A DNA stretch of 64,000 bases from Siderastrea siderea (Eukaryota > Cnidaria > Anthozoa > Scleractinia > Rhizangiidae), in NCBI GenBank assembly GCA_964030785.1, contig OZ034967.1:52667533-52731532 (forward strand), in the 5' to 3' direction. This document shows, one piece after another, positions 23,261 to 63,086 of the stretch. The position numbers and the translations under genes are program-made. The notes under the pieces were generated by a model, which saw only the letters and a program-made list of their open reading frames with translations, was not told the origin of the DNA and did no database searches. Numbering within the stretch: position 1 is the first letter of the stretch; every line of letters starts with the position of its first letter.

Positions 23261-24526
23261 GGTATTTTTTTGCTATTATAGTTGCTATCGTACAAGCAAA
23301 TAGCCTTGTTTAATTCATTTGGTTGTTTAATATTTTCTTCCTTTTATTTCAAGCAGGATTAGGTCAAATTAAATTACATTCTACAGCTGCACCGGCACCT
23401 TCGGGTAGGAAGCAAGTTAGAATATTTTGCTCCTAATAATTTGCACGCTCTGATTGGCTACTCAAACTCGGAATAGTTAACAATTTTTCACCGAAGTGGA
23501 GATGAATAGCAAAAACTATCCCAAGTTTGAGTAAGCAATCAGAGCGCGCGAAAAACACTATCCACTGGTTTGACATATACTAAAATCTGCTATTCACCTC
23601 CCAGCATTGGTCTTGATTTTTGCGCGCGAGTTTTCCCTCATTTCTCAGAAAAAAGGAACTATTTGGTGCTGGCTATCCACTGGTTTGGTATATAATAAAC
23701 CGAATTATTCACCTCCCTGTCGGTGAAGAGTGGCAGATATCCACCACTATTTACCTCCACTTCGGTGAATAACTAAATAAAGTGTTATGATTTACTGAAA
23801 TGAAGTCACTGAACAATGCTTTAGGGTGGTGCTGTTTATTATGCAGTACATGCTAGGTGTTAGGCGTAACCATTAAAATGCGGTGTTCTTCAGCAGGGTT
23901 TTTTTTTTTGCGTGTGGTTCTATTTGTTTGGCAATATTTTGCAAAAAAGGGATTTTGCCAAGTTTCGTACTTGCACGTACGTTAAAGTGAAAAGAGACAA
24001 GACAGACATGTGTGCATCATCGTTTCGTTTCTTTCAGAAATTCCATGCGAGGATAATCCACTCGGGGCAGAAGAAGGAGGGAAGTTGCCAAGTTCAAGCT
24101 TCAAAGCCTCCACGAGTTTTTACGAATTCACTCCCTCAAATGGTCGATTGAATGGACCACTAGCTTGGTGCTCCGCGGAGACAACGCCTGGGGAAGAGTT
24201 CCTACAAATCCACGTACCTGATGCCCAAACGATCTGTGCAATCGCTACCCAGGGCACTGGCTATGTCCATGGTAACGAATATGTTACATCTTATATTTTG
24301 GAGTACTCCAAGGATGGGAATCAATGGCAAATACTTGAAGAAGATGGGAGTGCTAAGGTATCGCTCTTTTTCAAAGAAATTTTTATCCATGTAGATATTG
24401 TTAATCCCCAAACAATATTTCGATGCAACAGTCTGCCGCATTACGTACGTTTTCACAGACAGCCTTTTTAAAAACGGAAGTTATTTTCTGTCAATCATTT
24501 AACTGTTTAATCTACTTAATGCAATG

Positions 24527-24582
<56 letters not shown>

Positions 24583-36500: not shown

Positions 36501-39500
36501 AATCTTCAAAGGACAGCGTTGCGTCGTCCCCTTGAGTCTACGTGCAAGAATTAAAGAGAAGTTGCATAGAGCTCACACTGGAATTCAGAGTTGCCTGCGC
36601 CGGGCTAGAGAAACCGTGTATTGGCCAGGAATGAACTCAGACCTAACCAACTACATTTCAAACTGCGATATCTGCTCATGTTATCAGTCAAGTCAAGCAA
36701 AAGAGCCTCTCATCTGTCATGAAATTGCTGATCGCCCTTGACAGAAGATTGGAGCAGATGTTTTCACACTAGATGGTACAGACTATCTCTGTGTGGTTGA
36801 CTATTATTCAAGTTACTTCGAAGTGGACAGACTAGAGAGCAAGACTGCAGCGAGTATCGCCAAGAAACTCCGGAAGCAGTTTTCAGTCCATGGGATTCCA
36901 AATCAACTAATCAGTGACAACATGCCATTCAACTCTCAAGAGTTCAAAGAGTTTGCAGCCAGCTACGAGTTCGAAGTCATCACAAGTTCGCCTGGCTATT
37001 CCCAGAGCAATGGCAAAGTTGAAAACACCATCAAGACCGCGAAAAACATCATGGAGAAAGCCAAGCAAGCCGGCACAGATGTTTACTTGTCCCTGTTGGA
37101 TTGGAGAAATGCTCCTTCTGAAGGAATGTCTAGTTCTCCCGCTCAAAGGATGTTCGGACGCAGAACAAGAACACTGCTCCCCACCACCAGTTCTTTGTTA
37201 AGACCAAAGGTCCAAGAAGATGTGAAGGAGAACCTGATCCAGCAGAAGTCCAAACAAACCAAGTACTACAATCGGACCAACAAGGAACTTCCACCCTTAC
37301 AGTCAGAGAGATTGTGCGAGTCGCTCCTAAACAAGGTGACAGAGAAAGAAAATGGTTCAAAGCTCGTGTCGAAGAACAAGTTGACATTCGGTCGTACGAA
37401 GTCAGGACTGAAGGTGGCAAACTGTACAGGAGAAATCGTCGACACCTTCGCCAGTCCAAAGAACCATTTGGTCAGACTACTGAAACCAGTCCTGTTGTGG
37501 AACCCCAACACAACCAGACCAAATCAACCCCAACAGCTGAACCAACCAGAACCCAAGCTACAGGTCAACCAGTCCAAAACACCCCTGTTGATCTGCCCAA
37601 GCAAACAGAACCGGTGACAGTGTCTCCAAGCCAGGAGCCATCTCCCACAACAAAGCCAACCACAGTTGTGACAAGGAGCGGCCGAGTCTCAAGGGCCCCA
37701 CAGTACTTACAAGACTTTGTTACACTCAGATAAGGACTTTGGAACATTACCTTTGACTAGGTTGTTTAATTGTTATCGCGCGAAGTTAAAGTTGAAGTTA
37801 AGAGACTGTTATTCATTATTTCAGTAACTCTTTTACGACAGAGTTCAGAGACAGTGACATCATTCCTTTCAGTTCGTCATAGCGACCTTTTATATGAACA
37901 CTGCGTTTGCTTATACTTTTTTATTTCTCTTCGAAAAAAGGAAAGGTGTGACGTCATGCTAGTCACGCGACGTTCTTACCATGTGCTTGCCGTATTGAAG
38001 TAAACATGGAGTTGTTGTTGTTCTTATAAGACTGTTTGTCGTCTTATTTCTCGCCTTGTTTACGCTCTCGAATAGCGTAACGTTACATTGTCTATCACTG
38101 CTATTTATCTTCTTTATTTTTTTGTTTATGCATTGTTTCAGGTGAGGAGGAAACCCCTGGTCCAACTACATCAGGTAAGATTCAAGCCCGCATCATGATT
38201 AACAAGAGAGGATACTCCTTGATAATGCCTTGCTACATTGTGTCACACTGTTATTTATCTCCTTCATGCTTTTTGTTTATGCCTTGTTTCAGCAGAGGAG
38301 GAAACCACTGGTCCAACTACATCAGGTAAGATTCGAGCCGGCATCATGATCAACAAGAGAGGATACTCCTTGCTTATGCCGTACTACATTGTCTATTACT
38401 GTTATTTATCTTCTTTATGACTTTTGTTTATGCTTTGTTACAGCAGAGGAGGAAACTACTGGTCCAGCTACATCAGGTACGATTCGAGCCAGCTCATTGA
38501 AAGAAGATAAATTCCTTGACTGAGCCGTGCTACATTGTCTATCACTGCTATTTAACTTCTTCATGTTTTTTTTAATGATTTGTTTCGACCAGCAAAGGAG
38601 GAAATCACTGGTCCAACTACATTAGGTACAATTTGCCTAAGATTGCCAATGAAAACATTGACTATGATTGACAGACGATATCCTCTCTTCTAGTTAAGGC
38701 TTGGACAAACGCCTTGCTAGATTTTCTACCACTGATAACTACTTTTTCTCTACATTTATTTATTTTTCTTGACAGAAGGGAGAACAATTGGGCCAACTAC
38801 GTCAGGTGAACTTTCAATTACGTAATACATGATGGTTAGCAAGCAAGGTTGTTCCTTTCCGGATTAAACGTTTCACAATAAATAAGCCATGCTGCTTTGT
38901 CCGTTGCTATATACATGTCCTTTACCTTGTGCTTTTCGTCAGTTTGTTTCTTTTTTATTAGTGTGTTAGTTTGTTTTTTTGTTTGTTTGTTTGTTTGTTT
39001 TTTGTTTGTTTGTTTTTTTTGTTTGTTAGTTTGTTTGTTTGTTTGTTTGTTTGTTTGTTTGCTGAAAGTTTATATCCCAGCTGTTTGTTTCATGTTATTG
39101 TTAAACAGCTGCGGAGTGTGAACCGGTTGGTGCCGCCTTTGAAGGTCCTTTGCCTGACTCAAGTTTTACGGCATCCTCTGAAGCTGGGGAAGACTATGCT
39201 GCTTTCAAAGGTCGACTATATGGTCCGTCAGCCTGGTGTCCAAACAGGAATTCAGACGTGTTCCTACAAATTGACTTGCCTTCTGAAATGGAGATTTGTG
39301 GAATTGAAACTCAAGGATCTGAGAATTTAGCCACCTGGGTCACAAAGTACGATGTTGTCCTTTCCAGTGATGGCTTACAGTGGCACCGAGTTGAGAAGGC
39401 GAGTAGATCTCTACAGATTGATTGATTAATCGACTGGTTGGTTGGTTGGTTGGTTGGTTGGTTGGTTTATTGATTGGTTGATAAGGTTATTGGTTTGCAA

Positions 39501-42500
39501 TTCATTATCAAATAAACGCGATGACAAATGTGCTAACTAAATCTTACAAAAGTCATTTAAATTGGTTTTGCAGACATTTGGCGGCAACGACAATGCGTAT
39601 GGACCTACACTCCAGTATTTACCAAACTCAGTCTCTGGACAGTACATTCGCATTTTTCCGAGAGACAGTGAGGGATTTCCTTGCATGAGAGTTGAAGTAT
39701 ATGCAAAAGGTATTAAACAACCCCATTTCCGAAAAATTTGTTTCAAATGCCTCCCGTTACAGCGTTAAGATGAGAGACAAATGAGGTCCAATCCACTTAT
39801 ATACTTAACCCTTTTCGAACGTTTTTGACAGACTTTCGAAGGTGTGGAAGGAAATGATGAGGAAATGTCTTATCTCTCATCAGCTCCGCCCAACACCCCC
39901 CCGCCCCCTCCCCTTTCCCCAGATAACGATCCCATGCCATTTTACAGCTAGTTTATCGACAGCATTTAACCAGATTTTCAGTCTGGACGAAGAAATGCCT
40001 TACAATAGCGTCCAGTTTTCTGCTGGTTGGTTTAGTCAGGACTCTATTTGGATTTCTCATCATATACTCGGCGCAATTGCATGAAGATCAAAGACTTTTT
40101 TGAGATAAAGTTATGCTGTATTTTGTTCCTGTTTCATCCGACATACATTAATTTAACTTTTTCAGCAGCAGCAAAAGCTCTTCATCCGACAGGTAAGACA
40201 AACCATATTTGAAATGATTTAATATAAGTTACAGCGATTGACATTTCGTTTATGCGTTATTGTTAACATCGTTGTGTGGGTCCTCATAAGATTATTCCGA
40301 TTTTTACAGGAAAACCGGTAATCAGACCGGGAAATTTTTAATTAAAGATAAAATGCGGGCCATTATGCGAATGAATACCGACAACAACAACTATAAGCTT
40401 TACTTACATGACCATAAAATCCTTACAGTATTCCAAAAGCGTAGGATAACATGAAAGGTCATGCGAAGTCGACATAGTGAACAAAATGCGATGGAAAGAG
40501 GAAGATCAGAATTAAGTCTTTGTCAGCAGACTGACAACAATCTCAATTCGCAGGTCCTGTCTGTTCATACGTATACGAGCAATCATTCCCTAACTGTATA
40601 AAAAAAATAAAAAAAGGAAGAATCATTTTACGAGAGAAAATGTATCAGGCATTTCTTATTCACTCCAGAACATTTCTATACCCTCTGGCTTTGAAAACAA
40701 ACTAGCTATAATGTGAGCCGCTTTCATCATCTTTATTGTCATCTCAAACGAGGCTTAACTTCCATAGTGTAAACAAGCGTACTCTGGAGTAAAAAGGACA
40801 GTTTACTGTAGATGTTGTTGAATTGCCCGCCATATCACTCAGCACGTGTGCGCCGTTCATACAACTCAGTGATTTCTGCAGGCATTTCATGCTCTTTTTT
40901 AATATTTCTGTTTCCCTCCTTTTAAAACAGAACAAGAAGCCACCCCAGAGCCAACCACAACAGGTGAATCTCTTACTTTTTAAAATACGTAAAGCCATTT
41001 CAAAACTGGTGCGGGTTTTATCTTAGTTTACATTGCATATTTAAGGCATTTTAATCCATTTTCAACTCCCCCTGTTGTTACTTCTCCCAGGATACCGAAT
41101 AATGTACTTTTGGGGGGGGGGCGGGGTATGTTGTCATATGTTCAAATAGCCAAAACAATCGACTTCTTTCAATGTTCTGGAAAAACATATGAACAAATTT
41201 CTTCCTTGTTGGAAGTATGACCCAACAGTTGATAACTGCACCCAGTAGTAGGGTTTGAACTAGGTTAGGGTAAGGGTTAGGGTAAGGGTTAGCCTTCTCA
41301 TGCCATTGCGGCACTAGCTTACGAGAGGTTCGGCTGTATTCTTTTCTGTATCAGCCGCTACAACTGCTCCACTGGAAACTCTTCCTGTACCAACAACAGC
41401 CAGTGAACCTATCAGTGAAGGAAAAGACATAGCAATTCTCATCGACAGTTCCTTTGGTGTGACTCCTGCGGAATTTGACAAGCTGAAGTTATTTGTATCA
41501 GGGCTGGTCGATTCCATCTTTGACCATTTCCCGGGAGTTCAGTTTGGATTTGTCGTCTACAGTAACCAACCAAAGCTTGTCATGACTCTCAAGACTTACG
41601 ATGATGTGGACGTATCGGGGATCATCCGAGGCATTGAGTATATCCCGGGAGGGCACCGGACCGACCTCGCCATGCTGGAGGCCAAGCGAGAGCTGTTCTG
41701 CCACGAGGGTAGCCGGGACCGTCCAGAGAACGAAAACGTAATGATTGTTTTCACTTCCGATAACAATGACGCTGGATCCCTTCCGTATAGCTTTGTAACG
41801 CAAAAAATAAAGGTATGCAAGGGTCATCAAGTCAAATAAATAGAGCTAATGAGACCTTTTAAGGGATAAACGTCTGAGCGACTCAGTTTTAATAAGTTGT
41901 ACCTAGAACAGCTGCGTCAAATGCAAATCTCCTTGACCATTAATCACGAAACAAATATTCGCTCGAAAAACCGATCGGAATCGTTAATTTTGTTATTGGT
42001 ACGACTCTTCAAGAAAATAAGTGACAAAGACGGTAAACAGTCTTTTGCCGAAAAACATTATCTGGAGTGTACAGCTTGTTTATTGAGTATGTGAAATTTT
42101 TTTTCTCAACTTGGGCTACCTAAGATTTCCCATGACTATCCGAAGGCTTCAGAACAAAACCAAAGATCAGCAGACCTTTTCCTAGGGTAGCTGATGAGAA
42201 TCGCAAGCTAAAGCTCCAAGAAAACTTTGTTTAAAAAACATGCCCAACTCAGTGTGAAAACGTGGTAGCACGGTACATAGAGTTGGACGCTTTTCTCGCC
42301 TTTGATGCTTGCTTCTGGAATCAAGGAATTTACTTATTTATTTATTTATTAACAATATTTAAACAGAGATGCCCAGTTCACCATACGCTGGTTTAAATGG
42401 GGCTCTGCAAACTATCTAATAAGAACAAATAAATAACAAGAAGAATAAATAAATAACGCACACAAAGAATAAGCAATAAACAAAGGCCTATTGAAAATCG

Positions 42501-49611: not shown

Positions 49612-50502
49612 ATGATGATGTTATTGTCGTTTGTCTTTTTTATGACCTTGTTGGATTCAGGTCATGGTAAGTTGATTTCTCTTGTTATGCAGCCAGTAAG
49701 GCGTGTAAAAAGCGCCAAGGTTTCTGTACCTCGCCGTAATGGGTCAGAGAAAAATAGCAAATGGAAAATGAAAGAAATACACCTCTGCAATTAGTTACTA
49801 GGGACTTAATCCATGGCGCTCGTGGTGTAGAAAGTGCACAGCACCTTTAATTTCTGATCGTAAAACTAGTCCTCACAATGCCCCCTCCCCTCCCCTAGCC
49901 TCCCCACCCACCCGACCATCACTTTAACCGCTTTTAGTGGTATGCTTGGCCTAGTTTTTAAAACAATCTTTAGCGCCTTGGAATGCCGTTTAAATTTTAA
50001 TTGTATATGTATGTTCTAGTCCATTTCAATTCTACTAACTGAGTCTCGATAAGGATTTTAACGACAACATCGAAAGTCGACTGGTTCTGCTCTCTATCGT
50101 CTCTACGACGGTAGAGACCAGTTATGGAGCAAAATAACATTTTTAAGTTGAAATCCAACACGCCACCTTACCCTTTAAGAGGAGATTTCTTTATGACCTT
50201 TTAGATTCTTCTCATTACTTACAAGGCGTTTCATGGTCTGGCCCCCACATATCTATCGGAACTGCTCACTGTCTATATATAGGCCATCCCGCTGTTTACG
50301 CTCTGAAATTTCTAATCTACTCGTGGTCCCCACATATAGAACAAAATTGTACGGAGCAAGAGCCTTTGCTGTTGCAGCTCCTACATTGTGGAGTAAACTG
50401 CCTAGCGCGATCACTGAAGAACTCTGAATCTGTAGCCACTTTCAAAACGAGCTTGAAAAGCTTCCTTTTCAAAAATTAATCATTATAATTGTTATGTTAG
50501 TT

Positions 50503-50570
<68 letters not shown>

Positions 50571-53500
50571 ATTATTATTATTTATTTTCGTAGGAAGATT
50601 GCTTCCACGTGAGAAGGTTGTTTTGGACAAGAAAGAAGCGTTCAACTTCTTTAAAATCTTCAAGGATAACATTGACCACGAATGCTATGAAGAGGGTTGT
50701 ACGTTTAACGAGGTTGTTAAGCACTATGGACATTCGGAGAAGTCGGTAGGTTGACCACCTTTTATTCTGACTTTGAGAAACCTCTGAAGAAAAGTTTTCT
50801 TACGAAACACCCTGCCTAACTTTTGAATCCTGTTCCAAAATGTAGTCGAAGTCCCACTTTATTGAAAGAAAAATTGCTAAAAAATAAATTCAGCTGTCAA
50901 AACCAATGCAATTGCTCTCATTTTACCCTCCTATTAGAGTAGCTCTTTCAACAATGATGGTAAATCCGTGAGTAAATTTGTCATTCCTTCCTTTTAATAG
51001 ATGTCTTACTATTGAAGGATTAAAGGGTTTTTTTTAATTGTCTCATTGCAGTACGAATACTGGAACACTTACCAATGCAAGCAATTCAAAAAGGACTGCG
51101 ACGGTACTTTCAATTGTAACAACTTATTTTAAGGAAGCCAAAGATAAGCTAAGATCTTGAATCTCCCAAAATTCAGTTGTTTTCAAATAAAAGGAGCTAA
51201 CAATGAGCCAGAGAGGTAGCTAAACAGTGTTTAATTGTACTTAAACATCGCTTTGCGCTGAATTTCAAGCTTTTTTAGACATGTAAAGCAAACACGCGCA
51301 CACGCGAAATACTGTCTCTACGCTGAACCGCAATTTTAGCCGAAAACTAACTTGGCAACATGACGTATCTCGATGGTGTAAACAATGGCGTTGCGGTTTT
51401 CAGAGTTCTTGGGATGATTTGAATGAATCCGAGCATGTGTATTTGCAAAAGGCGATTTGTCTGTACTACTCAAGCCAAAGAGAATTTTTTATCTAGTGTT
51501 TAACACTGACCCCAACGCCACGTCCAAGAAGACTGTAATCCTTTTTGACTTTTTAATTTTGTTGCAGATGTTGCTTGCCGCGGGAATGCCCTTGGAATGG
51601 AGAACTCAAAAATTTCTGGGGGAGGAATTCTTGCCTCTTCGTGGTATTCACCGTATGTGGACTTTCTTCCCTCTCAAGGGCGACTGAATAACAACAAAGG
51701 ATCCTGGTGCCCGAAAGCTGAAGATCAAGACAAGCATCCGTACCTTCAGGTAAGGAGCGGGAATAATTCTTGCATAGGGGGTGAAAATAAAAATGGATAA
51801 TTTAGAGAGAAATCACGTATCAGTGTTTTTTATTTTCTAGAAATGGAAGGCAGGGTCATTTTTATGACTTTCTTGTAATTTAGGAAGGTTAGATCACGCT
51901 AAAAATGCAAAACCTTAACGAGCAATCTATGCAGCTGTGATTCCGGCACATAGGGCGCTTTTCAACTGGGTTTCACAAAACCAAAACCAACTAGTAATTA
52001 CCTAGCCAATCACAACAACCAGAAATGAACCAACTGAACCAATCAGAACGAACGAACAATTCAATACGTGTATCAGGCGCGATTTGGTTTGATTTTTACT
52101 TCTAAATTGGTTGAGAAAATGGCGCGAGCTTTATAAACCAATCACAGGAAGAAGTGAACGCTAACCAAAGCAAGCGAGAATTATTTTCGACACTTCGTTG
52201 AAAACTCCTCACGATACACTGTTTTTGGCCTGTTTAAGAAGCGAAATTATCTTTATGTTATTAACTTATCAACAGACATGAGAAACGTTTGCTACGTTGA
52301 TATCAAATAAAAAAGTAATGGGTATATCCTCAACAGGTTGAGCTTCCTCAGCGCCATGGAGTGTGTGCAGTAGCCACGCAGGGATCTGCCTTATACGATA
52401 CTGATTACGCCACGAAATACGAGATTCAGACTTCACTGGACAGAAAGAACTGGGTGACATACAAAGAAAATGGCACCGACAAGGTAAAAATCCCAGGACT
52501 TCGACCACAAGGGTCACTAAAGAAATTTCCGTCTTAATCAGTCAGTAGCCATATTAGTTTTGTCAAGATTGTGTCGTCAAGCCACTGTTACAGTTTAACC
52601 TAAGGGTTACGAAAGATGGTTCGAGTAAAACAACACATACAATTTTGTTTGTCCAAATAGATTTCTATTTCACAAAACCTTTGCAATAGGAAAGAAAAAG
52701 TCCGTCGGGAAGGTCAGTGACAAGATCAACGCCCCAACCACTTTGCCATGTCTCATTCCCCTACTAAGAAAGTGAATTTAAGTGCACTTACAACATATTG
52801 ACGTTTCGACAGAGCAGATTTTGACAAATTCAGCTTCGCGCAGGATGATATGGTGGACTGAAGCACAAACATTTACTGAAGCCGATTTAAACATTACTTT
52901 TTCTCTATTTTTAACAGGTGTTTTCCGGAAACACTAAGGCCAAAGATATGGTAAAACGCAACCTGGACCAACCTGTTTTAGCCATGTTTGTCCGGTTTGT
53001 GCCCAAAGAGTGGAAAAGCTGGCCATGTATGCGTGTTGAAGTTTATGGAAAACCTGCTAGTAAGTCAAAGCGAGGGTCCATACCACTGAGTATTCCACTG
53101 TCAGCTAGCGTTTGCAAGGGAGAAAATTCGAGTTTTAAGAAGAACAATAATTAGTATGACATGCTTCAGTCCTTCAATATGACCTGCGGAAATTCTGCGG
53201 AAAGTCTGATTTGTCTAGTTTCCACTATACTCTCTGTATATCACGATCGTTGGGGGTCGAGTTCACCAATCTCTGCCGACCATCGTTATACAAATGATGA
53301 CGCGTGGCCAGTCGACTTTATCGCTTAATGTATTTTACTAACGGTAAGAAGTTGAATCATTGCTATCTACATTAAGTTGTACCTTATTTGTATTAAACAC
53401 CGTGACAAAACTGTCCACGGTTGATACATCCGTTTTTTTCTTCAGTGGGCCAGGAGCTTGTTTCATTATCATCATTATCATATTATCATTATATGAAGCG

Positions 53501-55445
53501 CAAAAAACTGAGCCAAACGCGAAGAAAGCAAAGCAAGAAAATATAAACTGTACCCATGAACGGTACCTGTCTCACAAAAATAATTTCGATGAACTGCAAT
53601 CTGCTTCCAATCTTGTGATCCTGCACTTTATCTTGAAATTGTGCGGACGCAGTACGCAGTACGCATGCGTCTGCATCTATGTCATCGTCTTTCAGACTTT
53701 GTTTGTTTGTTTGAGTTTGGTACGGGCTCCTGAGTCTAGAGTAAATCAGGGCAGCGGTTTTCTTGGGGGTGGGGAGGTTTATTCAGCGGGGAGTAAGGAA
53801 GGGAGGGGTTTGCAGAAGACTCGGGCTGTTTGGTCGGCGGGGTAGTGTCTAGGCGACCAAACCGCTGATCAAAGAATTCTTGGAAAGCTGGACGGTTCCG
53901 TTTCTCTTGATTCCTGAAAATGCTGACACGATCTGCTGGCACAAGCTAAAGAGCTTACGTAGTGTGAGTACGACATTGCGTTCGCCTGTTTCTGCTTCAT
54001 GTTTACTATAAATTTTGTACTTATTGTACTTCTTGCGTACCTAAGGACCATTTATGTTCTTGTTTTTTTTTTTTTCAGATTGCACAGTGAGGACAACAGA
54101 CAACAAATGTTGCGTGTTTCCATTTATGTACGAGGGAGAGCGAATGTTTAACTGCGTGTCCTACTCATTTGGCAGGAAATGGTGCGCAACAACGTCCGAC
54201 TATGATAAGGACGGTGAATGGGGAAAATGCTTAGGTTTGTTTAGGTCTCAGTATTCAGACTCTAGCGAGATGACCCAAAGCCCGAAGACACTATTATTCT
54301 ACTATAGTTCTTGAACTGTGAGAGGCTTTCACAAAGCCGCTACTATGTAGCCCAGAAATTAAAGCCTCATTCTAGCCCCCTTTACCCAAACGAGTCTTCA
54401 AATTACACCTTTAACAAAGGGACTTAGATGAGTTCTAGCGAAGGATTTCCTCGAATTTCCACTCTGTCTTGGTGTTTATTAAAAAATATGCTCCCTCAAT
54501 TTAGTGTGTTGCATGAGCCTCGTGGTAAGAGTATAGTTCGTCTTTGATAGTGTAGATCTTCTTGATGAGAGAATAATTTAATCTGCCCCCCCCCCCCCCC
54601 CCCCCACCTCGGTAACACGGAAAGCCATAAAAATCTACACGTAGAACAAAATTTCATTTTTCAAATCTGCATACTTAATCTCCACAGTATCAACGAACGC
54701 TTTTCATTCAACAAATTTATTTCAACTAATTTATTCTTGTTTTTCACGTTGCCATTTTCCTACCAATAGCTCCACCGGTCTCCATAAACAACCAACCACA
54801 ATTCCTTGATTCGCTCAGACAAAGGTTAACGCTCCAAACGTCAGCTGTCAATCTCATTACAGTGGCCAATTTACCGTGTCAACTCAGTTGATAACTCCGA
54901 ATGTTTTTTGTTTTGATTGGTTAAGAAGTGGCGGATTGCCCTAGCTAAATTATATTAAGGGGCCGTTCACATGATACTGGAATGACTTTCATTCATTCTA
55001 TTCCCATTTATTTCTCCGTATCTGTTTACATGATACCGAGACGAAATTTCGTTCCCGTATAAGTCATTCCGGAATGAGTTCATTCCGGTTTTCAATCCGA
55101 ACGAAATTCTCGTTCTGGTAAGACATTTCATTCTGGCATCATGTAAACTGAAAACAAACTCCGTTCTTAGATGAAACCGCAAACCGTATAGTCAGGGACG
55201 AGTGGCGCATGCGTATCGTTTTCAAGAAGGCAGACAAAACGGTCGTTTTCAAGATGGTCGTGCCCGTCGATTTTGTCATATGAATGCAGTACGAACTTCA
55301 TTTTGGAACGAAACTCATTATGGTATCATGTGAACAGCCCCTAAGACTAAGAAGGCCGGTGATGGTAAATTTCCTAATTCTCCAGTTTAAGTTTGCCATT
55401 TATAACAAATTATTCTCTTTCTTCACAGAGGAAGACTTGAAGTAA
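49612..55445 (+). CDS. gene 2: secreted Gla-like / F5/8C / fibronectin type II protein
   Basis: Eight coding exons: 49612-49666, 50594-50745, 51052-51103, 51568-51749, 52337-52483, 52918-53059, 54079-54234, 55429-55445. Every junction has AG/GT and consistent phase; the total is 903 bases, 300 residues. The start is MMMLLSFVFFMTLLDSGHG, a clear signal peptide; an acceptor TTTATTTTTAG at 49599 suggests a 5' UTR intron. Domains: Gla-like (about residues 19-85), F5/8C (about 90-240), FN2 (about 245-293), then EEDLK and stop. There is no membrane anchor. Gene 3 is a tandem paralog. The product should be exported and bind Ca2+, phospholipid or matrix; the exact role is unknown. Domain calls are strong for F5/8C and FN2, moderate for Gla. 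Confidence 0.85.
50190..50480 (+). mobile_element. 3' fragment of a CR1/L2-like LINE reverse transcriptase
   Basis: Translation shows YRPSRCLRSEISNLLVVPTY and GARAFAVAAPTLWSKLPSAI, the typical C-terminus of CR1/L2-type LINE proteins. A frameshift lies between the YLSELLTVY part and the rest. It sits in the first intron of gene 2, followed by an ATT run. Confidence 0.75.
50503..50578. repeat. (ATT)n microsatellite
   Basis: About 23 ATT units at the tail of the LINE fragment, only 15 bases before the splice acceptor of the Gla exon at 50594. Length changes here could affect splicing. Confidence 0.95.
50594..51103 (+). CDS. gene 2 exons: Gla-like domain
   Basis: Exons 50594-50745 and 51052-51103. 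The product after the signal peptide has VVLDKKEAFNFF, reminiscent of the vertebrate propeptide VFL..E.A..IL, then NIDHECYEEGCTFNEVV and YEYWNTYQC. This follows the vertebrate Gla order N-L-E-R-E-C-x-E-E-x-C ... F-W-x-x-Y, including the ExxxExC motif at ECYEEGC. If modified by gamma-glutamyl carboxylase, the Glu residues would bind Ca2+. A separate dibasic propeptide cleavage site is not visible. The two-exon split with a phase-0 intron before YEYW recurs in gene 3. Confidence 0.7.
51568..53059 (+). CDS. gene 2 exons: F5/8C (discoidin) domain
   Basis: Exons 51568-51749, 52337-52483 and 52918-53059. Landmarks: DVACRGNALGM start, ILASSWYSPYV, GSWCPKAEDQ, YLQ|VELPQRHGVCAVATQGSA, TDYATKYEIQTS and CMRVEVYGK. 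The intron after YLQ is absent in gene 3, while the intron before VFSGNT (phase 0) is shared by all F5/8C copies in the window. Confidence 0.9.
54079..54234 (+). CDS. gene 2 exon: fibronectin type II domain
   Basis: Phase 1 to phase 1, acceptor after a long T run. It encodes CCVFPFMYEGERMFNC, then KWCATTSDYDKDGEWGKC. This fits the FN2 pattern C-x2-P-F-x-[FY]-x7-C-x8-W-C-x4-D-Y-x5-W-x2-C. FN2 modules bind collagen or gelatin in vertebrate proteins, so matrix binding is the likely role. Confidence 0.9.
54958..55342. mobile_element. 385-bp MITE
   Basis: The left end AGGGGCCGTTCACATGATA is the inverted complement of the right end TATCATGTGAACAGCCCCT. GAACGAAA / TTTCGTTC motifs recur inside. It lies in the last intron of gene 2. 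No coding capacity. A poly-C run lies upstream near 54587-54605. Confidence 0.85.
55429..55445 (+). CDS. gene 2 last coding exon
   Basis: After acceptor CTTTCTTCACAG it encodes EEDLK and TAA at 55443-55445. Very short, but phase and the AATAAA 175 bases downstream support it. Confidence 0.75.
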
Positions 55446-55619
55446 ACGGCAAAAAAGTTCAACTCAGCTGTTCAAGCACAAAAGCTGGAAGTAGAAAGAT
55501 TTTTAGTTGGAAAAGACAGACCAGTTACTTTGCACATTTTCTTCTTTGTCACATGCACATACATGGGTTATTTTTAAACCTTAGATTGTTATGCGGTGTT
55601 CGTAGAGAGAAAAGCATTA

Positions 55620-55625
55620 AATAAA
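55620..55625 (+). terminator. polyadenylation signal of gene 2
   Basis: AATAAA, 175 bases after the stop codon, the first canonical signal downstream. Confidence 0.65.
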
Positions 55626-57050
55626 CCACATTTATACACCAGCCTTTTTATTGGATTATGTACGGCCTGACTCTCAATACTGACTCCTAGAAAGTGAGTG
55701 TATACATGCATTTTAATTTAATGTATACTTACGCCACCCCTTCAATATCTCTACTTTGATCTTCTCCACATAGAGGGAAAATGAAAATGGCAAGGAACGA
55801 TGGGAAGGTAGCTCTAAAAAAATAGAGCTAGCTCTCTTACACGAATTTCCATTCGTTTTTGCCTTAATTTTTTTGTGAAGTTTTTTTGTGGGAACACTGA
55901 CATACTGCTAAAGAATAAGGAGGCTTTTGAGTCACATTCATAGCCAAATTTTCCCACGGAACAATTGTGTCTTGTTCTTGCCTTTTTGGCCTTGACAACA
56001 ACTTGACAACCTTCTCAGCTCGCAAACGATGAGAAACTGTATTGATTTTTAAACGTTGACAATAAGAATTTCTTGCTTTGTTTGGATAGCAAAACAGGTT
56101 TTGTGAAAGCACAGGGGCACCCAACGGTTCGTTTCGGGAGATATCTGTTCGGTGAGGCCTAAATCGCCTGAGAAATTTGGATTTAATTGCAGTGAAAAAT
56201 AGAGATTTTTTGGCGAAAATAAGCTAAGCTAGCATTTTCGGAGAGCTGTCAGCAGCTATAAAATTTGGCTGATAGGATTCTGCTCCCTAAAATTTTTTAA
56301 GGCCTTAGTTTTCAGCTAAAACCTCCGAACAGATCAACCAGTGTTAGCTGACACAAGTATGCCTTTAAAAGCTCTGAAACAATCCAAGAAAGTAGAAAAT
56401 GATATTTGAAGTATTTCGCTAAAATTTTCTTGTTAGGTGCCCTTGAAAGCAAGTCAAACTCCATAGGATAACTACCAATTGCTCTTTTTGTTTATTTACC
56501 ATCTAGTTTCACTTCTGGATCCTCATTACACGGCTAGCCTCTGACTGAAATGAAACACACGTCAAGTTCCTTTTATAAAAAAAAAAAAAAACAATGAAAA
56601 TATTCCATATACGACTAAATTAAATGCAAACGCAGTCCATAAACCTAATCCGTGACATGCAAGAAATGTATGGAACATTAGCTTTACAACCTTAAATATC
56701 TCCAACTGATCTTTCATTTAGGCTAAATTCCTCTTTTGTTTTTTTCTGGATCAATTCTCTCGTTCTTTTGTTTAAAGTTTCAGACCATTTGCATGTATTG
56801 TAGTAAATATTGAAATTCCGTGCCTCTGAGTCTATTCTGTGATTAAAAAATTTTATCGACTTGTTAGTCTAGCTGTGTTTGAATTCATCTCGGTTGACGG
56901 ACAATTAGAGGATTTGATGGACGATTATTTATGGTTGCACAATTGACCATGCATAGTATTTTCAAATGAGCAGTAACGATTAAAACAGGCGCCAAAATTG
57001 CCAGATAGGACAAGAGACAATATCATTTCACAGCTGATTGTGTAACAAAA
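55626..57050. other. intergenic, no gene seen
   Basis: Spacer between gene 2 and gene 3. Only short frames on both strands. It should hold the gene 3 promoter. A possible 5' UTR acceptor (TCATTTCACAG) lies at about 57032, shortly before the gene 3 ATG. Confidence 0.5.
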
Positions 57051-60000
57051 ATGTTGTCCACTTGGATTGCATTACTGCTGGTATTCATTATACAGAGCTC
57101 TCAGAGTAAGTTTGGTGCTTGCCATAATATTTTATACCTTTAGTGTCTATCACGAGCATTTCACTTAATATATATTTATAGTTACAGTCAGAGGATTTGT
57201 CTCGCTACAAGGCAAAGGAAACTGCGTGGGTTACATTTAATTGCCTTTTTACCCAACGCGTGATAAACGTCAGCGAATGTCTCTTAATGTTAGGAAATTG
57301 GGATGAATCGGTCTGAGAGATCTCTGAGAGAACACTGTCTCATCAGCGACTATGTCACCTCCGGCCTTAAGCGACCACCTTTATAAATGTGTATTTGGAT
57401 TACAAACATTCGTAAACCTGAGTATGATCATCCACCTATCTTTATTCCGAGGCTGTCCATGCACCAACAAGACATTTAACGGTAATTAAAATGAAGCTGT
57501 TTCCTGCAAACGATTGCGTTTATTTATCCTGAGGGGTGTCACTGGAGAGAGTTAAATGTCGAATCAATTCCTGAAACCGGTCCCCAGTCGTACTATCCCG
57601 ATATTAGTCGTTTCGCAGTTGCGATGTAGGGGGCTACGGTCCTTGTTTAGGGAAATTAAGGTTGTTTTTCAATATGCAGGTCTCTCTTACCGCGCACAAG
57701 ATGTGGTTTTGAGCAAGAACAAAGCGTTGTCGTTTTACAAACGCTTTATTGACGATAACATTGACGAGGAGTGTTACGGCGAGGAATCCTGCGATTATGA
57801 AGAAGTGGTTGAGAAGTTTGGTCATTCCGAACAGTCGGTTTGTATGCCATGCGCGATGTGATAAGAATTTACAGTAAAAACTCCTTAACCCTCTCACTTC
57901 CGAAGCGCCCAAGATCGAACTGATAAGAAAAAATAATTTATTTGTGTTTGCAAACATCACATTTTTATAAATGAAAGAACTGCTCAGTTTCAACCACAAA
58001 GTACATGAGCAAACGTTTGACTACAAGAGATGAAGGGTTATTACTGAGGACGTTTCAGAGCATTCAGAGGGAAGAGTTGAATGTCTGCAAGACACACATA
58101 AAGATGGCTGAAATAACTGAGTTGTTATTCTACATGATAAAAATGTGTCGGGAATAAAAGGAAAGAAAACGGAATTATACACAACTTTCATACTAGAATC
58201 ACAACAGTTTATCGGCATAGGTGTTAGTAAAAACTATTTATTCATACCACTTTTTATTATTCTACAAAATATCCCATACTATTCAATCAAACCATTCAGT
58301 CTAAATGTAAATCAGTAGTAGTCTAACAATTCAAGCTAGAGAATAATATAACTGTCAAATTAAGTAACTGAAGCATTCATTAAGCCTGTCAGTTTAAACA
58401 GAATGTCGTCTACTATTAAAAAAAAATGAAACAGTTTACAATGTGTGGTAGCCAAGAGGGACTGCATGGGCATTACATCCTTTTTGTTCGAAATAAGGCT
58501 TGAAAATCCCAGTTCCTTTGTATTTTCATTCTCATTTCTTTTGGGCCCCCTCCCTGTACGTCTTGATTAGTTCCACCACTATATAATCGTTTTGTTTTCT
58601 GATTATTTATCTCCCACAGAAGAGACCCCAGACATGCTAAGAAGTGTTATCGGTGTTGGCCGCGTTAATTAATTCTATTTTTTTAGAGCTAGAACGAATA
58701 TGTGCAAGTTATATCTATTACACTTATGTGATTTCACGTTGGAAAAACTTTGACTGACAATTTAAATCTATTAATTAATATTCTGACAATGAATATTTTA
58801 TCTAGTTATTACTGGTATACATTTTAGTCGAGTTCTATTTTATTTCTTCTCAGTACGAATACTGGAACACGTACCGATGTAATACATCGAAATATCGCTG
58901 CAAAGGTAAATAACCTTCGACTTTTCCATATCCTTCTTAAGTTATTTTGTTTTACTTACAACGCAAGCATAGCCAACAAAGGGGCCGATTACACGGCGAG
59001 TTTCAGCCAGGGCTGAAATTTGGCCCCTCTCACCGGGATGAATTTTTTTTATCTCAGTTTGTGAAACCGGGCTAAAGCTTTCTTCACGCGTACGTAATCG
59101 TAAACGTCTTTTTAAGAAGATTTGTTCAGGAAGCCAAGCTGAAATCTCAGCCAGGCTAAACAGGTTTAAATATCAGCCCTACAACGAAACCTAATATAAG
59201 GGGCCTCATCAGAGAGTTGAAGCTAAACATAAAAGACAGATTGGGATTAAAGAAAAACCCAACAACGATGATTACAGTTTCTTTAAAAAATTATTCTCCC
59301 AGTTTTCTAGAATTTTCTGGAAATAAAAATAATTGACTTTGGCTGCAAAAAGCTTTAGCCGGTGAAAACGGATTGTAACTTGAAAAAATTGGGTCAAATT
59401 TTCAATTCTGCCTTTTATGTCTTAGAGAAATCTCTTGTCAATCACGACAAACATTAATAAAGCAATTAACCAATCATAACTCGGAGCAAAAACACGTGTT
59501 AGGCGCGTCAAGCGCGGGAAAACGCGTGAAACAAAGGCAATTGGTTTTAGTTACTCCTGATTAATGAGAAAGTGGTGCAGTTTAATTAAACCATGAAAGA
59601 CATTAAAGGGGGTTTGTCACCTATTTTTAGGCGTAGATTACTTTAAAAGCCGAAAGACAGATTGAAATCAGAGGAAGCTTAAAAATACTGTTTCAGTTTG
59701 GTTTTAAGTTACTCTACCAGTTCTGAAACTGTAGTTACCTGCCGGCTGTTTGCACTGATCGCTAGGATGGAAATGGAAATGGATTGCAACTTGAAAACAT
59801 TAGTCTAATGTTTACGACTTTCTCCTTTGTTTCTGGCTAAACTGCGAAAATCATTCTGTTTCTTTCTCTTGATGTTGTAAGAGCATTTCTTGTACGACAA
59901 TAGATATTTAATTTGAATTTCAGCACGTTTTTCTCCCCAAAACGTGAAATTCCCCTTGACAGAGCCCCTTTAACAGGAAATCAAGCAAAGGTGAATCAGT

Positions 60001-63000
60001 CACTTAAATTCAAAACAACTGAAAACTGCTCTTAATACCTTGCATACACGCGTGAATGTTCTTTTTAATTCCAATCCAGACGTCGCTTGTCGTGGATATC
60101 CAATTGGCATGAAGAACGGGAAAATACCGGACGAAAACATCGCCGCGTCATCATGGCAGGAACCGTTTCACGCCTTCCGACCAGAGGCCGGTCGTCTTGA
60201 CAACGAAGATGGTGTATGGTGTCCCAACACACTTGGCGAGGTTGATAAGAAGTATTACCTTCAGGTTGAGTTTCCCGCTAGATACAACATCTGCGCTGTC
60301 GCCACTCAAGGCTCAGCCCTTTATGACACCGACTGGGTCACGAAATATCGGATTGAATTTTCCACGGACGGCCAAAACTTCACGCTTTACACAGAGAACG
60401 GAACCGTTAAGGTAGAGTAGAGACCAGGACATACGGCGTAATTTTTCTCAATTCCTCACTTGCACTGTACTGAACGAGACGATTGCTACTTTCTCAATTG
60501 CAACAGTTTGCGTCAATCCCTGAAAGTATGGTTGGAACAATGCGAGCAACACATGATGGATGGGAAATGATTTTTTTTCTGAGGGGGGTTACCCATTTGT
60601 ACACCTGGGAGGAGAGGGACAGTGTTGAGTTAAAATCTTGTTTAAGGAAACAGCACGGCACTTTGCCGCAGTGCCTACCGATATGGGTGTGTTTTTTTGC
60701 GTTGAAATTATTCGCAAATTTAACTTGTGCAGTTTTCTTGTTGTACTTTGAAAATGCAACAAAACTCGTCCTTTGGGGTGTTTCATGTGATGAGATCTCA
60801 TCCATAATAAATCATCCAGGTATTTTGCAATATTTCTTCTCTTACAGGAGTTCGCAGGAAACACTAACGCCAATGAGATGGTCAAAAACGACTTGAACCG
60901 CCCTATCACCGCGCACTTTATTCGTTTCATACCAGTGGAATGGAACTACAAACCTTGCATGCGAGTGGAGGTGTATGGCACGGCCATCGGTAAGATCTCC
61001 ATCTTCATCTCTTGTCCTCACGATCGTACTCAACAAAGTTTTATACGGGAAGGCTCCGCTCGGAGGTTCAAACCCTATACTAATTTTTTTCCAAAATGGT
61101 ACCCCGTTTATATACCTAGAGCAAATTTTGAACCCCTTTCTCATACCTCAAGGATAAGCCAAACAGTAGAATTTCCTTTAATCGCCATGTTTTTCCCGGG
61201 TTTTCAGTCGTTCCGATTCAGTTGCGCAGTCACTTCTGCCACAATGTGGCACCCTTTGATATAATTCGCTTTAGCCACCATTTCTTCCACTTTGCAGCTG
61301 ATTTTGTGACCCTTTGTATACTAAAATGGAAATTTTCCCCGACCCTTTAATATACTGCGAGTTCGAAAAAGGCACCCCTTTCGGGCGGAGCCTCCCCGTA
61401 TAGCCTACTATAGGGAGTACCCCCCAGGTTTTTTAACACGATTGGCTAAACGAAACAATAGCAATAACAGAGAGTATAGCCCTAGTCCATTAAACAAAAG
61501 AAGTGCAATTTGAGGACAACTATTTAAAAGTTCAAAATTGTTCAGATCAACAAGAGCCAAGACCTGGTCCAAAATACAATTAGGCCACTTCCACAAAGGC
61601 GTCACTTGGCTTTAACTGCCAAAATTTATTTTGTTTTCGTTTCTTGTGTAAATTTGGTAATCCCAGTTACGTTTAAATAGCAAATCGCTAATTTGCATCT
61701 GAAACCAACCAACTGAAGAATGGTAGATGTTGCGACATAGCAAAGATCTATAATTTAAAACAGGCGTCATTATGGGCTATTTTCACAAAAAGCTGTGGTT
61801 TATAACCCCTTTGAGACCATCGCTGTTGCTCGTGATACTTGTCTACAGGTAACTTATAATATTGAAGATTATTATCGTCATTCCACTATTGTGTCATTAT
61901 ACCGTATAAGGGCAAGAGGACGCGTAAAATATGCCAGCTTATTATCCAACTGTTATAGTTATTGTACAGAAAGCGCGCGAAACGAGTACAAATATCCCAT
62001 GCACGATATTGTACAGTTGGTTATTGTACAGTACCATGCGCGCGCTCATCTTTTTCTACTTATAGTTTTCTTTCAAGTTACTGAAAAAGGTTGAAGAAGG
62101 TTAAGTTGGATAATAAATCTCTTATTAGATGTTTCGGTGCGAAGTACCGCCGTAAATTTTTACGGGTTGTGCTGTATTTTGACGAGCCCGCAGGGCGAGT
62201 CAAAATACAAACAACGAATAAAAATATACGGAGATACTTCACACCGAAACATCTAATAAAATATATATATTATCTATCAAAACACCGAATAAGCTGTATT
62301 TATTTCGAACCAACATTGAATGGGGTTGGATACTTTCATAGTTTCTCAGAGGAGTTTATTACCCCCGGCTCCGGGGCTTTATTAACAGTTTTACGACAGC
62401 TTCAGTGCGTCTCAGTGGAAAATGTGAGATTATTTTGAAATTTATTTCCAATTTTCGTGAAGTTTACTTTTTCAACGACACAGAAATAACATTAAATGAA
62501 AGAAATAAGTTAATTAAACAGGAAGAGGAATGATGTGGCTCACGCTAACCGGAAAAACCAAAGTGAGAAACAAAACAGGGATCACCCAAACTGCAACAAT
62601 CTTTTCAAACTCCTAGATAGTCTATTTTTTTTCTAGACCACTTTATTTAAATGAATTTCCTTCCAGGATTTTTTGTTTATACCGTAACCTTGTTAGAAAT
62701 AGATTGAAGCACTGATTTTTTTGTTTTTGTTTTACAGCCTGTCCGTGGAAGACCAAGAATGACAATTGCTGTGTGTTTCCGTTCACTTACAAAGGACAGA
62801 AGCATTACAAATGTATCATCGACTGGGTCTGGATGCCGTGGTGTGCTACAACTTCAAATTTTGACAAAGATAAAAAATGGGAAAACTGCCTTCCCCGTAA
62901 GTGCTGATTTGTTTGTTACTCTCTTTCCTATTTCAAAATGTTTTTGTTTTTTGAGCAGGACGAACTAGTCGTCGCTCTGTAACTGTTGCATGCAACGTTC

Positions 63001-63086
63001 GGTGCAACGTGGATGTCTGTCCGGATTACACCGTACCCGTAAAATACTGGAATCGAACTAAAAGGGTAGAGTCACTGGCTCTATGA
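57051..63086 (+). CDS. gene 3: secreted Gla-like / F5/8C / fibronectin type II protein with extended C-terminus
   Basis: Seven coding exons: 57051-57105, 57680-57837, 58854-58905, 60080-60411, 60848-60989, 62738-62896, 62959-63086. Total 1,026 bases, 341 residues. The start is MLSTWIALLLVFIIQSSQ, a signal peptide. The start exon (55 bases), the Gla exon pair (second exon 52 bases), the final F5/8C exon (142 bases) and all phases match gene 2, so the two arose by tandem duplication. It differs from gene 2 in having one fewer F5/8C intron, one extra residue between the Gla cysteines and a longer Cys-containing tail. Secreted; function inferred as Ca2+/phospholipid or matrix binding. The last exon could instead splice on at AAAAGG|GTAGAG into sequence beyond the window. 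Confidence 0.85.
57680..58905 (+). CDS. gene 3 exons: Gla-like domain
   Basis: Exons 57680-57837 and 58854-58905. The product reads VVLSKNKALSFYKRF, NIDEECYGEESCDYEEVVEK and YEYWNTYRC. The vertebrate-like CDYEE and F/Y-W-x-x-Y-x-C segments are present. The cysteine spacing is C-x5-C, against C-x4-C in gene 2 and in vertebrate Gla domains, so the exact ExxxExC motif is disrupted. Nine Glu/Asp lie in the core, compatible with metal binding even without carboxylation. Confidence 0.65.
60080..60989 (+). CDS. gene 3 exons: F5/8C (discoidin) domain
   Basis: Exons 60080-60411 and 60848-60989. Landmarks: DVACRGYPIGM start, IAASSWQEPF, GVWCPNTLGE, YYLQVEFPARYNICAVATQG, TDWVTKYRIEFSTDGQNF and PCMRVEVYG. 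The first exon covers what gene 2 splits in two. The region between the exons contains a repeat-like segment (CACCTGGGAGGAGAGGGAC). Confidence 0.9.
61025..61427. mobile_element. second copy of the hAT-like MITE
   Basis: Shares GTACTCAACAAAGTTTTATA, the TATACCTAGAGCAAATT segment and the right-hand GGGCGGAGCCTCCCCGTATA with 8231-8702. The left terminus is eroded and no duplication was found. Lies in the gene 3 intron before FN2. Confidence 0.75.
62123..62258. repeat. short palindromic element
   Basis: TATTAGATGTTTCGGTG at the left is mirrored by CACCGAAACATCTAATA at the right, 136 bases overall, with further GAAGTA/TACTTC pairing. Probably a MITE remnant in the gene 3 intron. Confidence 0.75.
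62738..62896 (+). CDS. gene 3 exon: fibronectin type II domain
   Basis: Phase 1 to 1. CCVFPFTYKGQKHYKC then PWCATTSNFDKDKKWENC fit the FN2 consensus, including the paired WC and W-x2-C. The four core cysteines are in place. Confidence 0.9.
62959..63086 (+). CDS. gene 3 last exon: basic motif and Cys-containing tail
   Basis: Continues phase 1 from 62896 and runs 42 residues to TGA 63084-63086. It begins RRTSRRSVTVACNVRCNVDV, then CPDYTVPVKYWNRTK. RTSRR is a possible proprotein-convertase site that would release a short three-Cys peptide. An N-glycosylation sequon NRT is present. Gene 2 lacks this tail. Confidence 0.65.

What the first reader, a model, noticed from the sequence alone, without database searches (positions are those of the whole stretch)
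49612..63086. Tandem Gla-like / F5/8C / FN2 genes: an unusual combination of two membrane-binding modules
Genes 2 and 3 join a domain with vertebrate-style Gla landmarks (N-I-D-x-E-C, CxYEE-type, YWNTYxC) to one F5/8C and one fibronectin type II module. In vertebrate coagulation, Gla and F5/8C domains sit on different proteins and both bind phosphatidylserine membranes. Here one secreted protein has both, in a likely cnidarian. It could be an ancient clotting, wound or mineral-binding factor. Sequence shows the motifs; function is inference.
Basis: partly seen in the sequence, partly recalled or inferred. Interest (0 to 1): 0.88.

Follow-up and report, generated by a model that had tools for sequence, protein, structure and literature searches.

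The report
Coral clotting-type Gla domain gene pair
Two neighbouring genes in a likely stony coral each join a clotting-factor-type Gla domain to an F5/8C and a fibronectin type II domain, and the same genome holds genes for the vitamin K enzymes that would modify it, so the coral likely makes vitamin K-dependent, calcium-binding matrix proteins, a system best known from vertebrate blood clotting and bone.

Summary
Genes 2 and 3 each encode a predicted signal peptide, Gla, F5/8C and FN2; Gla passes Pfam's cut-off in both (32.2 and 29.4 bits against 27). Borders are GT-AG with phases 1-0-1 around the two-exon Gla module, from recalled knowledge the vertebrate clotting-factor pattern. A near-identical relative on a transcript-sized contig bears out gene 3's splicing and moves its 3' end just past the window. 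In 15-16 aligned family sequences five glutamates never vary, all on factor IX Gla positions. The same genome encodes a gamma-glutamyl carboxylase and two VKOR loci. A second anthozoan family, Gla plus cysteine modules plus F5/8C, reaches Actinia and Nematostella and keeps a propeptide-type RxxR site in 8 of 9; the window family has it in 0 of 15. 'Two membrane-binding modules' is unproven: the Gla7/8 equivalents are missing in 15 of 15, and F5/8C scores do not settle lipid against protein ligands. Structure models were too poor to test the fold. Carboxylation, ligand and role are untested.

The parts
49612..49666 (+). gene 2 exon 1: start codon and predicted signal peptide (by eye); donor GTAAGT, phase 1
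50594..50745 (+). gene 2 exon 2: carboxylase-recognition-like stretch VVLDKKEA and Gla domain core; phase 1 in, phase 0 out
51052..51103 (+). gene 2 exon 3: aromatic-stack exon YEYWNTYQC...; phase 0 in, phase 1 out
51568..51749 (+). gene 2 exon 4: F5/8C, first part
52337..52483 (+). gene 2 exon 5: F5/8C, second part
52918..53059 (+). gene 2 exon 6: F5/8C, third part; phase 1 out
54079..54234 (+). gene 2 exon 7: fibronectin type II; phase 1 in and out
55429..55445 (+). gene 2 last exon (likely): EEDLK-stop, matching the end of relative P0011
57051..57105 (+). gene 3 exon 1: start codon and predicted signal peptide (by eye); phase 1 out
57680..57837 (+). gene 3 exon 2: recognition-like stretch VVLSKNKA and Gla core with one extra residue between the two Cys; phase 1 in, phase 0 out
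58854..58905 (+). gene 3 exon 3: aromatic-stack exon YEYWNTYRC...; phase 0 in, phase 1 out
60080..60411 (+). gene 3 exon 4: F5/8C, first two thirds (no intron where gene 2 has one)
60848..60989 (+). gene 3 exon 5: F5/8C, last part
62738..62896 (+). gene 3 exon 6: fibronectin type II.

Best explanation
Genes 2 and 3 encode proteins with one Gla, one F5/8C and one FN2 domain that are predicted to be secreted and likely act as vitamin K-dependent, calcium-switched bridging proteins: the coral's own carboxylase would turn the Gla glutamates into gamma-carboxyglutamate, calcium would then fold the Gla end onto an acidic surface (membrane or mineral), and the F5/8C and FN2 end would hold collagen-like matrix. 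Shown: the domains, the splice pattern, five unvarying glutamates on factor IX Gla positions, a recognition-like stretch before them, and GGCX and VKOR genes in the same genome. Inferred: secretion, carboxylation, calcium binding and both ligands. The recognition stretch would stay attached in the mature protein, because the RxxR site seen in the sister family is not found here; matrix Gla protein is a recalled precedent for an uncleaved site.
For: Gla over the Pfam cut-off in both genes; PDB best hits are factor X/IX Gla. Phase 1-0-1 Gla module in gene 2, gene 3 and the C13 gene. Glu unvarying at factor IX positions 17 and 21 (15 of 15) and 27, 36, 40 (16 of 16); all 6 Glu of gene 2 in the 37 ungapped columns fall on the 10 factor IX Glu columns, P = 9e-5, though the alignment itself favours matched Glu. 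GGCX: HTTM domain 148.1 and 136.5 bits in two exons, carboxylase lumenal domain 93.3 bits, PDB best hit vitamin K-dependent gamma-carboxylase E 3.6e-54 with the KKLD-DW stretch kept. VKOR at two loci, two matches each over the cut-off, CxxC kept. FN2 nearest MMP-9 and MMP-2; F5/8C single-sequence best single-domain chains are DDR2 (gene 3) and neuropilin-2 (gene 2). Relatives on contigs of about 1-2 kb, read as spliced transcripts.
Against: The equivalents of Gla7/Gla8 are missing in 15 of 15, so the vertebrate way of membrane docking may not hold. Glu is absent at positions 15 and 33 in all, and at 26 and 30 in many. Gene 3 has an extra residue between the two Gla-core cysteines. With a profile of 11 relatives the F5/8C scores no longer separate DDR2 (100.6 bits) from factor VIII (100.6), with neuropilin-2 at 104.9 and lactadherin at 96.5, so collagen as ligand is weakly based. 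AlphaFold models were too poor to test the fold (mean pLDDT 35.0 and 55.8). No gamma-carboxyglutamate, ligand or tissue was measured. The recognition pattern is loose: it also matches parts of signal peptides, and Phe at its second place, recalled as typical, occurs in 2 of 24.
Confidence: 0.48

Rival explanations
1. Stony-coral skeletal or extracellular matrix protein: the Gla end would bind aragonite or calcium at the calcifying surface, as osteocalcin and matrix Gla protein do with mineral in vertebrates, and F5/8C plus FN2 would fix it to the collagenous matrix.
For: All five species named among the window-family hits are stony corals, while the sister family, searched with the same tool, reached Actinia and Nematostella. 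FN2 is nearest to MMP-9/MMP-2.
Against: No skeletal proteome was examined; one paper search on the subject was only listed. Pocillopora and Stylophora gene models lack Gla, although both calcify. Only 5 of 22 and 6 of 36 rows carry a species name, so the restriction to corals is weakly sampled.
Confidence: 0.2
2. Phosphatidylserine bridge (opsonin), working like MFG-E8 or Gas6: marks dying cells or the symbiont-holding compartment for uptake or recognition.
For: Gla and F5/8C are the phosphatidylserine-binding modules of Gas6/protein S and of MFG-E8 (recalled). One relative is named lactadherin-like. For gene 3 a lactadherin domain (2l9l, 83.6 bits) ties with neuropilin-2. Vitamin K-dependent recognition in a sea anemone symbiosis was proposed for Sym32 (PMC3141003, passages).
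Against: Gla7/8 missing; gene 2 F5/8C scores lower with lactadherin (61.9) than with neuropilin-2 (79.2) or DDR2 (75.2); no EGF or LamG domain was found.
Confidence: 0.17
3. A Gla-derived but uncarboxylated domain: a structural disulfide module that no longer needs vitamin K.
For: Fewer Glu than factor IX; gene 3 insertion; no Glu at 15 and 33 in any family sequence.
Against: Five Glu on Gla positions do not vary; the recognition-like stretch with its Ala is kept in 15 of 15; carboxylase and VKOR genes are present.
Confidence: 0.13
4. A clotting factor proper, part of a vertebrate-like coagulation cascade.
For: Gla and F5/8C are both clotting-factor modules (recalled).
Against: No protease, EGF or kringle domain is joined to them in either gene; no cascade was looked for.
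Confidence: 0.02

Closest known systems
Vertebrate Gla domain (PF00594) of factor IX, factor X, prothrombin
   Same: Profile and sequence homology, the two-cysteine core, ExxxExC in gene 2, the aromatic E-Y-W stack, and exon phases 1-0-1 (vertebrate phases recalled)
   Different: No Gla7/Gla8 equivalents, no RxxR processing site found in the window family, fewer Glu, no EGF, kringle or protease
Anthozoan Gla - cysteine modules - F5/8C family (C13 gene; P0037 to P0047, Nematostella member named SCO-spondin isoform X3 by NCBI)
   Same: Same two-exon Gla module with the same phases in the C13 gene, recognition-like stretch, E17, E21, E27, E40, and an F5/8C domain in the same protein in 10 of 11 by precomputed listing
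   Different: About nine WxxW cysteine modules in between, no FN2 listed, and an RxxR site before the Gla core in 8 of 9; Gla scores 20.2-25.5 bits in 4 of 5 tested, below the cut-off 27, and was not reported for the fifth
MFG-E8 (lactadherin) and Gas6/protein S
   Same: Each uses one of the two modules, F5/8C or Gla, as a lipid anchor (recalled)
   Different: No EGF or LamG; here one protein has both modules plus FN2
Sym32 / periostin vitamin K hypothesis in sea anemones (PMC3141003)
   Same: A cnidarian adhesion protein proposed as a carboxylase substrate (passages)
   Different: Sym32 is described there with two fasciclin I domains and a recognition motif, not a Gla domain
DDR2 / neuropilin discoidin domains; MMP-2/MMP-9 FN2 repeats
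   Same: Best single-domain, single-sequence matches of F5/8C and best matches of FN2
   Different: No kinase, CUB, MAM or metalloprotease domain here; with a family profile the F5/8C lead shrinks

Membership tests
Gla domain (PF00594) | Pfam profile score over the curated cut-off | tested here: met
   32.2 and 29.4 bits against 27
Gla domain (PF00594) | ExxxExC core with disulfide cysteines | tested here: inconclusive
   Met in gene 2 (ECYEEGC); gene 3 has one extra residue (ECYGEESC)
Gla domain (PF00594) | Glu kept at known Gla positions | tested here: met
   Positions 17, 21 (15 of 15) and 27, 36, 40 (16 of 16) unvarying; 15 and 33 never Glu; 20, 26, 30 vary
Gla domain (PF00594) | N-terminal omega loop with Gla7/Gla8 | tested here: not met
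   No Glu between the recognition Ala and position 16 in 15 of 15
Gla domain (PF00594) | Gamma-carboxyglutamate actually formed | not testable with these tools
   Needs mass spectrometry
Gla domain (PF00594) | Gla fold | tested here: inconclusive
   Models at mean pLDDT 35.0 and 55.8; no fold search run
Vitamin K-dependent protein system | Gamma-glutamyl carboxylase in the organism | tested here: met
Vitamin K-dependent protein system | Vitamin K epoxide reductase in the organism | tested here: met
   Two loci, two matches each over the cut-off
Vitamin K-dependent protein system | Cleavable propeptide with recognition site | tested here: not met
   Recognition-like stretch 15 of 15, RxxR 0 of 15; sister family 9 of 9 and 8 of 9. 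Matrix Gla protein also lacks it (recalled)
F5/8C domain (PF00754) | Pfam score over the cut-off | tested here: met
   83.7 and 81.1 bits against 28.2
F5/8C domain (PF00754) | Phosphatidylserine-binding subtype | tested here: inconclusive
   Single-domain PDB bits, gene 3: DDR2 94.9, neuropilin-2 up to 87.0, CASPR2 and lactadherin (2l9l) 83.6, factor VIII up to 71.9, factor V 68.6; gene 2: neuropilin-2 79.2, neuropilin-1 up to 77.3, DDR2 75.2, factor VIII 68.7, factor V 68.6, lactadherin 61.9; family profile: neuropilin-2 104.9, DDR2 and factor VIII 100.6, lactadherin 96.5, factor V 96.1
Fibronectin type II (PF00040) | Pfam score over the cut-off | tested here: met
   54.6 and 51.5 bits against 22.2
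Clotting factor | Gla joined to EGF or kringle and trypsin domain | tested here: not met
   None found in either product

The most novel reading that the evidence does not exclude
The Gla module, its vitamin K cycle and its 1-0-1 exon layout already existed in the ancestor of cnidarians and bilaterians, and stony corals turned it into a pair of vitamin K-dependent Gla-F5/8C-FN2 proteins whose carboxylation is fed by phylloquinone from their algae and which fasten mineral or symbiont surfaces to collagen matrix, so that loss of algae would switch the protein off.
Probability: 0.12. Interest if true: 0.92.

Novelty: new variant of a known kind. Interest (0 to 1): 0.72.

Why it matters
The Gla domain is usually treated as a chordate module tied to clotting and bone (recalled; PMC9643190, passages, takes a tunicate protein as the best hit for Gla). 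Coral and sea anemone genes with the same module and, in one genome, the same exon layout and the enzymes to modify it would date the vitamin K-Gla pair to before the cnidarian-bilaterian split. They would also give the proposed role of vitamin K in anemone symbiosis (PMC3141003, passages) concrete substrates, testable with warfarin and mass spectrometry.

Tried and rejected
Clotting-factor reading: rejected as main reading, since no protease, EGF or kringle is joined. Chance match of the Gla motif: rejected. Contamination of the carboxylase hit: thought unlikely, since the gene is split by introns on a 50-Mb contig and matches animal GGCX. A first gene 2 tail (APPVSINNQ...) was considered from the stop-to-stop list and dropped for EEDLK. 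Structure prediction: two jobs gave poor models, so no fold search was run. Weak Gla-like hits on C11, C3 and C7 (25.4, 22.5 and 22.3 bits, with 2 to 3 stops): I read only one strand of these loci, which for C11 and C7 was not the matched one; read again on the matched strand they are copies of one repeat with no Gla core, and are set aside as chance. Paper searches for vertebrate intron phases: one search was listed but no paper of it opened, held none, so those phases are recalled. Two cysteine modules of the C13 gene gave no Pfam hit. A search of the genome with the C13 Gla exon itself did not complete, so three Gla exons is a lower bound; the Pfam search in six frames missed that of gene 3, which the protein query found.
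Full report
What is there. Genes 2 and 3 lie head to tail on the plus strand. Gene 2 has eight exons (seven, the last); gene 3 has six exons in the window and a seventh at window-equivalent 64119-64132, read from the neighbouring genome sequence. All borders modelled are GT-AG. Each product has a hydrophobic start (predicted signal peptide, by eye), a Gla domain, one F5/8C and one FN2, all over Pfam's cut-offs. The two products are 50.8% identical over 295 aligned residues.

The gene models are borne out by relatives. A search with the gene 3 product gave 22 proteins, and a search with an alignment of 11 of them gave 36. P0001 is 96.7% identical over 303 residues (98% in the local alignment), encoded on a contig of 1342 bases while the gene spans about 7 kb; this reads as a spliced transcript, which is my inference from the lengths. 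Its end, RSKQ, moved the end of gene 3 out of the window. No such near-identical relative of gene 2 was found; its best is P0006 at 80.8%. Rows that name a species (5 of 22 and 6 of 36) are Montipora, Oculina, Orbicella, Pocillopora and Stylophora, all stony corals, so the organism is a stony coral by inference; the genome itself is unnamed (830.9 Mb in 402 contigs). The nearest named gene 3 relative is from Montipora at 73%, so the species is not known.

Is it a Gla domain? Yes by sequence. Pfam, and phmmer against the PDB, both point to factor X and factor IX. In the ungapped alignment of gene 2 to human factor IX residues 9-45 there are 12 identities in 37 columns; all 6 Glu of gene 2 sit on the 10 Glu columns of factor IX (P = 9e-5; the alignment itself favours matched Glu, so this is support, not an independent test). 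That every one of these factor IX Glu is carboxylated is recalled. In the two genes and their relatives with the stretch, positions 17 and 21 are Glu in 15 of 15, and 27, 36 and 40 in 16 of 16; position 20 in 11 of 15, 30 in 7 of 16, 26 in 4 of 16, 15 and 33 in none; outside Gla positions Glu occurs at 16 (6 of 15) and 37 (2 of 16). Rows left out of this count (P0014-P0022 and P0024-P0036) were partial or had no Gla region. Missing in all 15 are the glutamates equivalent to Gla7 and Gla8, which in vertebrates help order the membrane-facing loop (recalled).

Exon layout. The signal exon ends in phase 1, the Gla exon in phase 0 after the residue that aligns with factor IX 38, and the short aromatic-stack exon in phase 1. 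The C13 gene has the same layout. From recalled knowledge this is the layout of F9, F10, PROC and F2. If so, the module was inherited with its introns; I could not test the vertebrate side.

The enzymes. A PF05090 search of the own genome found two matches on contig C9, both over the cut-off. The surrounding 9.9 kb holds further exons: the exon at L003:7295-7894 matches vitamin K-dependent gamma-carboxylase in the PDB at E 3.6e-54, with KKLD-DW kept (that this holds the catalytic lysine is recalled), and another matches the carboxylase lumenal domain at 93.3 bits. The one stop reported inside each PF05090 match lies at its edge, next to the open frames. PF07884 found four matches over the cut-off at two loci, on C13 and C6, one with a stop at its edge; the pieces hold the loop cysteines and CxxC. 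So the parts of a vitamin K cycle are encoded; I did not build full models of these genes.

A second family. The own genome has a third Gla exon on C13, found by Pfam at 24.3 bits in six frames, below the cut-off. Read on the minus strand, it has the phases above, and a rough query of it with nine following cysteine modules found 15 proteins. Eleven of these are relatives of 46% identity or more, among them Oculina, Porites, Desmophyllum, Actinia and Nematostella; the remaining four are remote thrombospondin-type proteins at 22-27%. The eleven are 800-948 residues long apart from one of 702, and 10 of 11 carry F5/8C by the precomputed listing. Gla scored 20.2, 21.8, 20.7 and 25.5 bits in four of five tested, below the cut-off of 27, and was not reported for P0044. 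The core is nevertheless plain in 9 of 9 with an N-terminus: HECYxEGC, then EE followed by V or I, then EY, an aromatic, YTY and a cysteine (P0043 and P0045 lack the N-terminus). In these 9 a recognition-like stretch is followed by RxxR in 8, as in a processed propeptide; P0039 lacks it. In the window family the stretch is kept in 15 of 15 but RxxR is in 0 of 15. I read this as loss of processing, so that the recognition stretch would remain in the mature protein. The pattern is permissive, since it also hits signal peptides.

What F5/8C and FN2 may bind. Against single-domain PDB chains the gene 3 F5/8C domain scores best with DDR2 (94.9 bits), then neuropilin-2 (up to 87.0), CASPR2 and one lactadherin domain (83.6 each), then factor VIII and V (up to 71.9 and 68.6); gene 2 scores best with neuropilin-2 (79.2), neuropilin-1 (up to 77.3) and DDR2 (75.2), then factor VIII and V (68.7, 68.6) and lactadherin (61.9). 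Longer chains with two such domains, headed by factor V or a venom factor V, have higher summed scores. A profile of 11 relatives gives neuropilin-2 104.9, DDR2 and factor VIII 100.6, lactadherin 96.5 and factor V 96.1. So the scores lean at most slightly to protein ligands and do not settle lipid against protein. FN2 is nearest to MMP-9 and MMP-2, then fibronectin and PDC-109.

How it likely works. Carboxylation by the coral GGCX, calcium-ordered Gla end on an acidic surface, and matrix held by F5/8C and FN2. Every functional step is inference. The mineral reading gains from the window family being named only in stony corals while the sister family reached sea anemones; it loses from Gla-less gene models in Pocillopora and Stylophora.

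What is known. PMC3141003 (passages) proposed vitamin K-dependent carboxylation of Sym32 in a sea anemone and a link to symbiosis, and calls VKOR and the carboxylase conserved throughout metazoans; in the passages I saw it does not describe a Gla domain protein of its own. PMC9643190 (passages) included Stylophora and reports its Gla best hit from a tunicate. In the held library, searches for Gla domain with cnidaria, Nematostella, coral or Ciona, and for the carboxylase or carboxylation with coral or cnidarian, showed no report of cnidarian Gla domain proteins in the listings; only PMC3141003, PMC9643190 and PMC3927609 were opened, by passages. The protein databases already carry the Pfam label for some of them, so the domain is not unseen by annotation.

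Verdict. A real Gla-F5/8C-FN2 pair in a likely coral, a new arrangement of known modules as far as these searches show, in a genome with the enzymes for it. Membrane binding by two modules is not shown. Novelty: new variant of a known kind.

Noticed in passing
G000:C13:24750000-24768999 (L005, L006, L007), minus strand: A second kind of Gla gene: Gla exon, about nine WxxW cysteine modules and, in relatives, a C-terminal F5/8C; relatives in Actinia and Nematostella, the latter named SCO-spondin.
   Followed up: yes
window 23986-25139, 39105-39714, 41402-41836: Upstream F5/8C exons (43.0 and 53.1 bits) and a VWA exon (69.7 bits), perhaps one large secreted matrix gene.
   Followed up: partly
window 32899-33301 and 38084-38628 (also single units near 21777-22121): Tandem 150-base units, each holding a mini-exon-like stretch reading like AEEETTGPTTSGK between AG and GTAAG or GTAGG, 2.7 and 3.6 copies; may build a Thr/Ser-rich linker of the upstream gene.
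   Followed up: partly
window about 34001-37730: Retrotransposon-like stretch with reverse transcriptase (66.8 bits) and an integrase match below its cut-off (26.6 against 32.6) between the F5/8C exons.
   Followed up: no
proteins P0017, P0018: Pocillopora and Stylophora gene models have a hydrophobic start, F5/8C and FN2 but no Gla, named inactive carboxypeptidase-like X2; true loss or a model error.
   Followed up: no
window 30872-31437: Tandem repeat, period 247, 2.3 copies, 99% matches.
   Followed up: no
window 51568-52483 and 60080-60411: Gene 2 has an intron inside F5/8C (after YLQ) that gene 3 lacks.
   Followed up: no
G000:C11:34842823, C3:48918704, C7:40574693 (L016-L018): Copies of one repeat give a weak, stop-broken match to the gene 2 Gla query; no Gla core on the matched strand.
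   Followed up: partly
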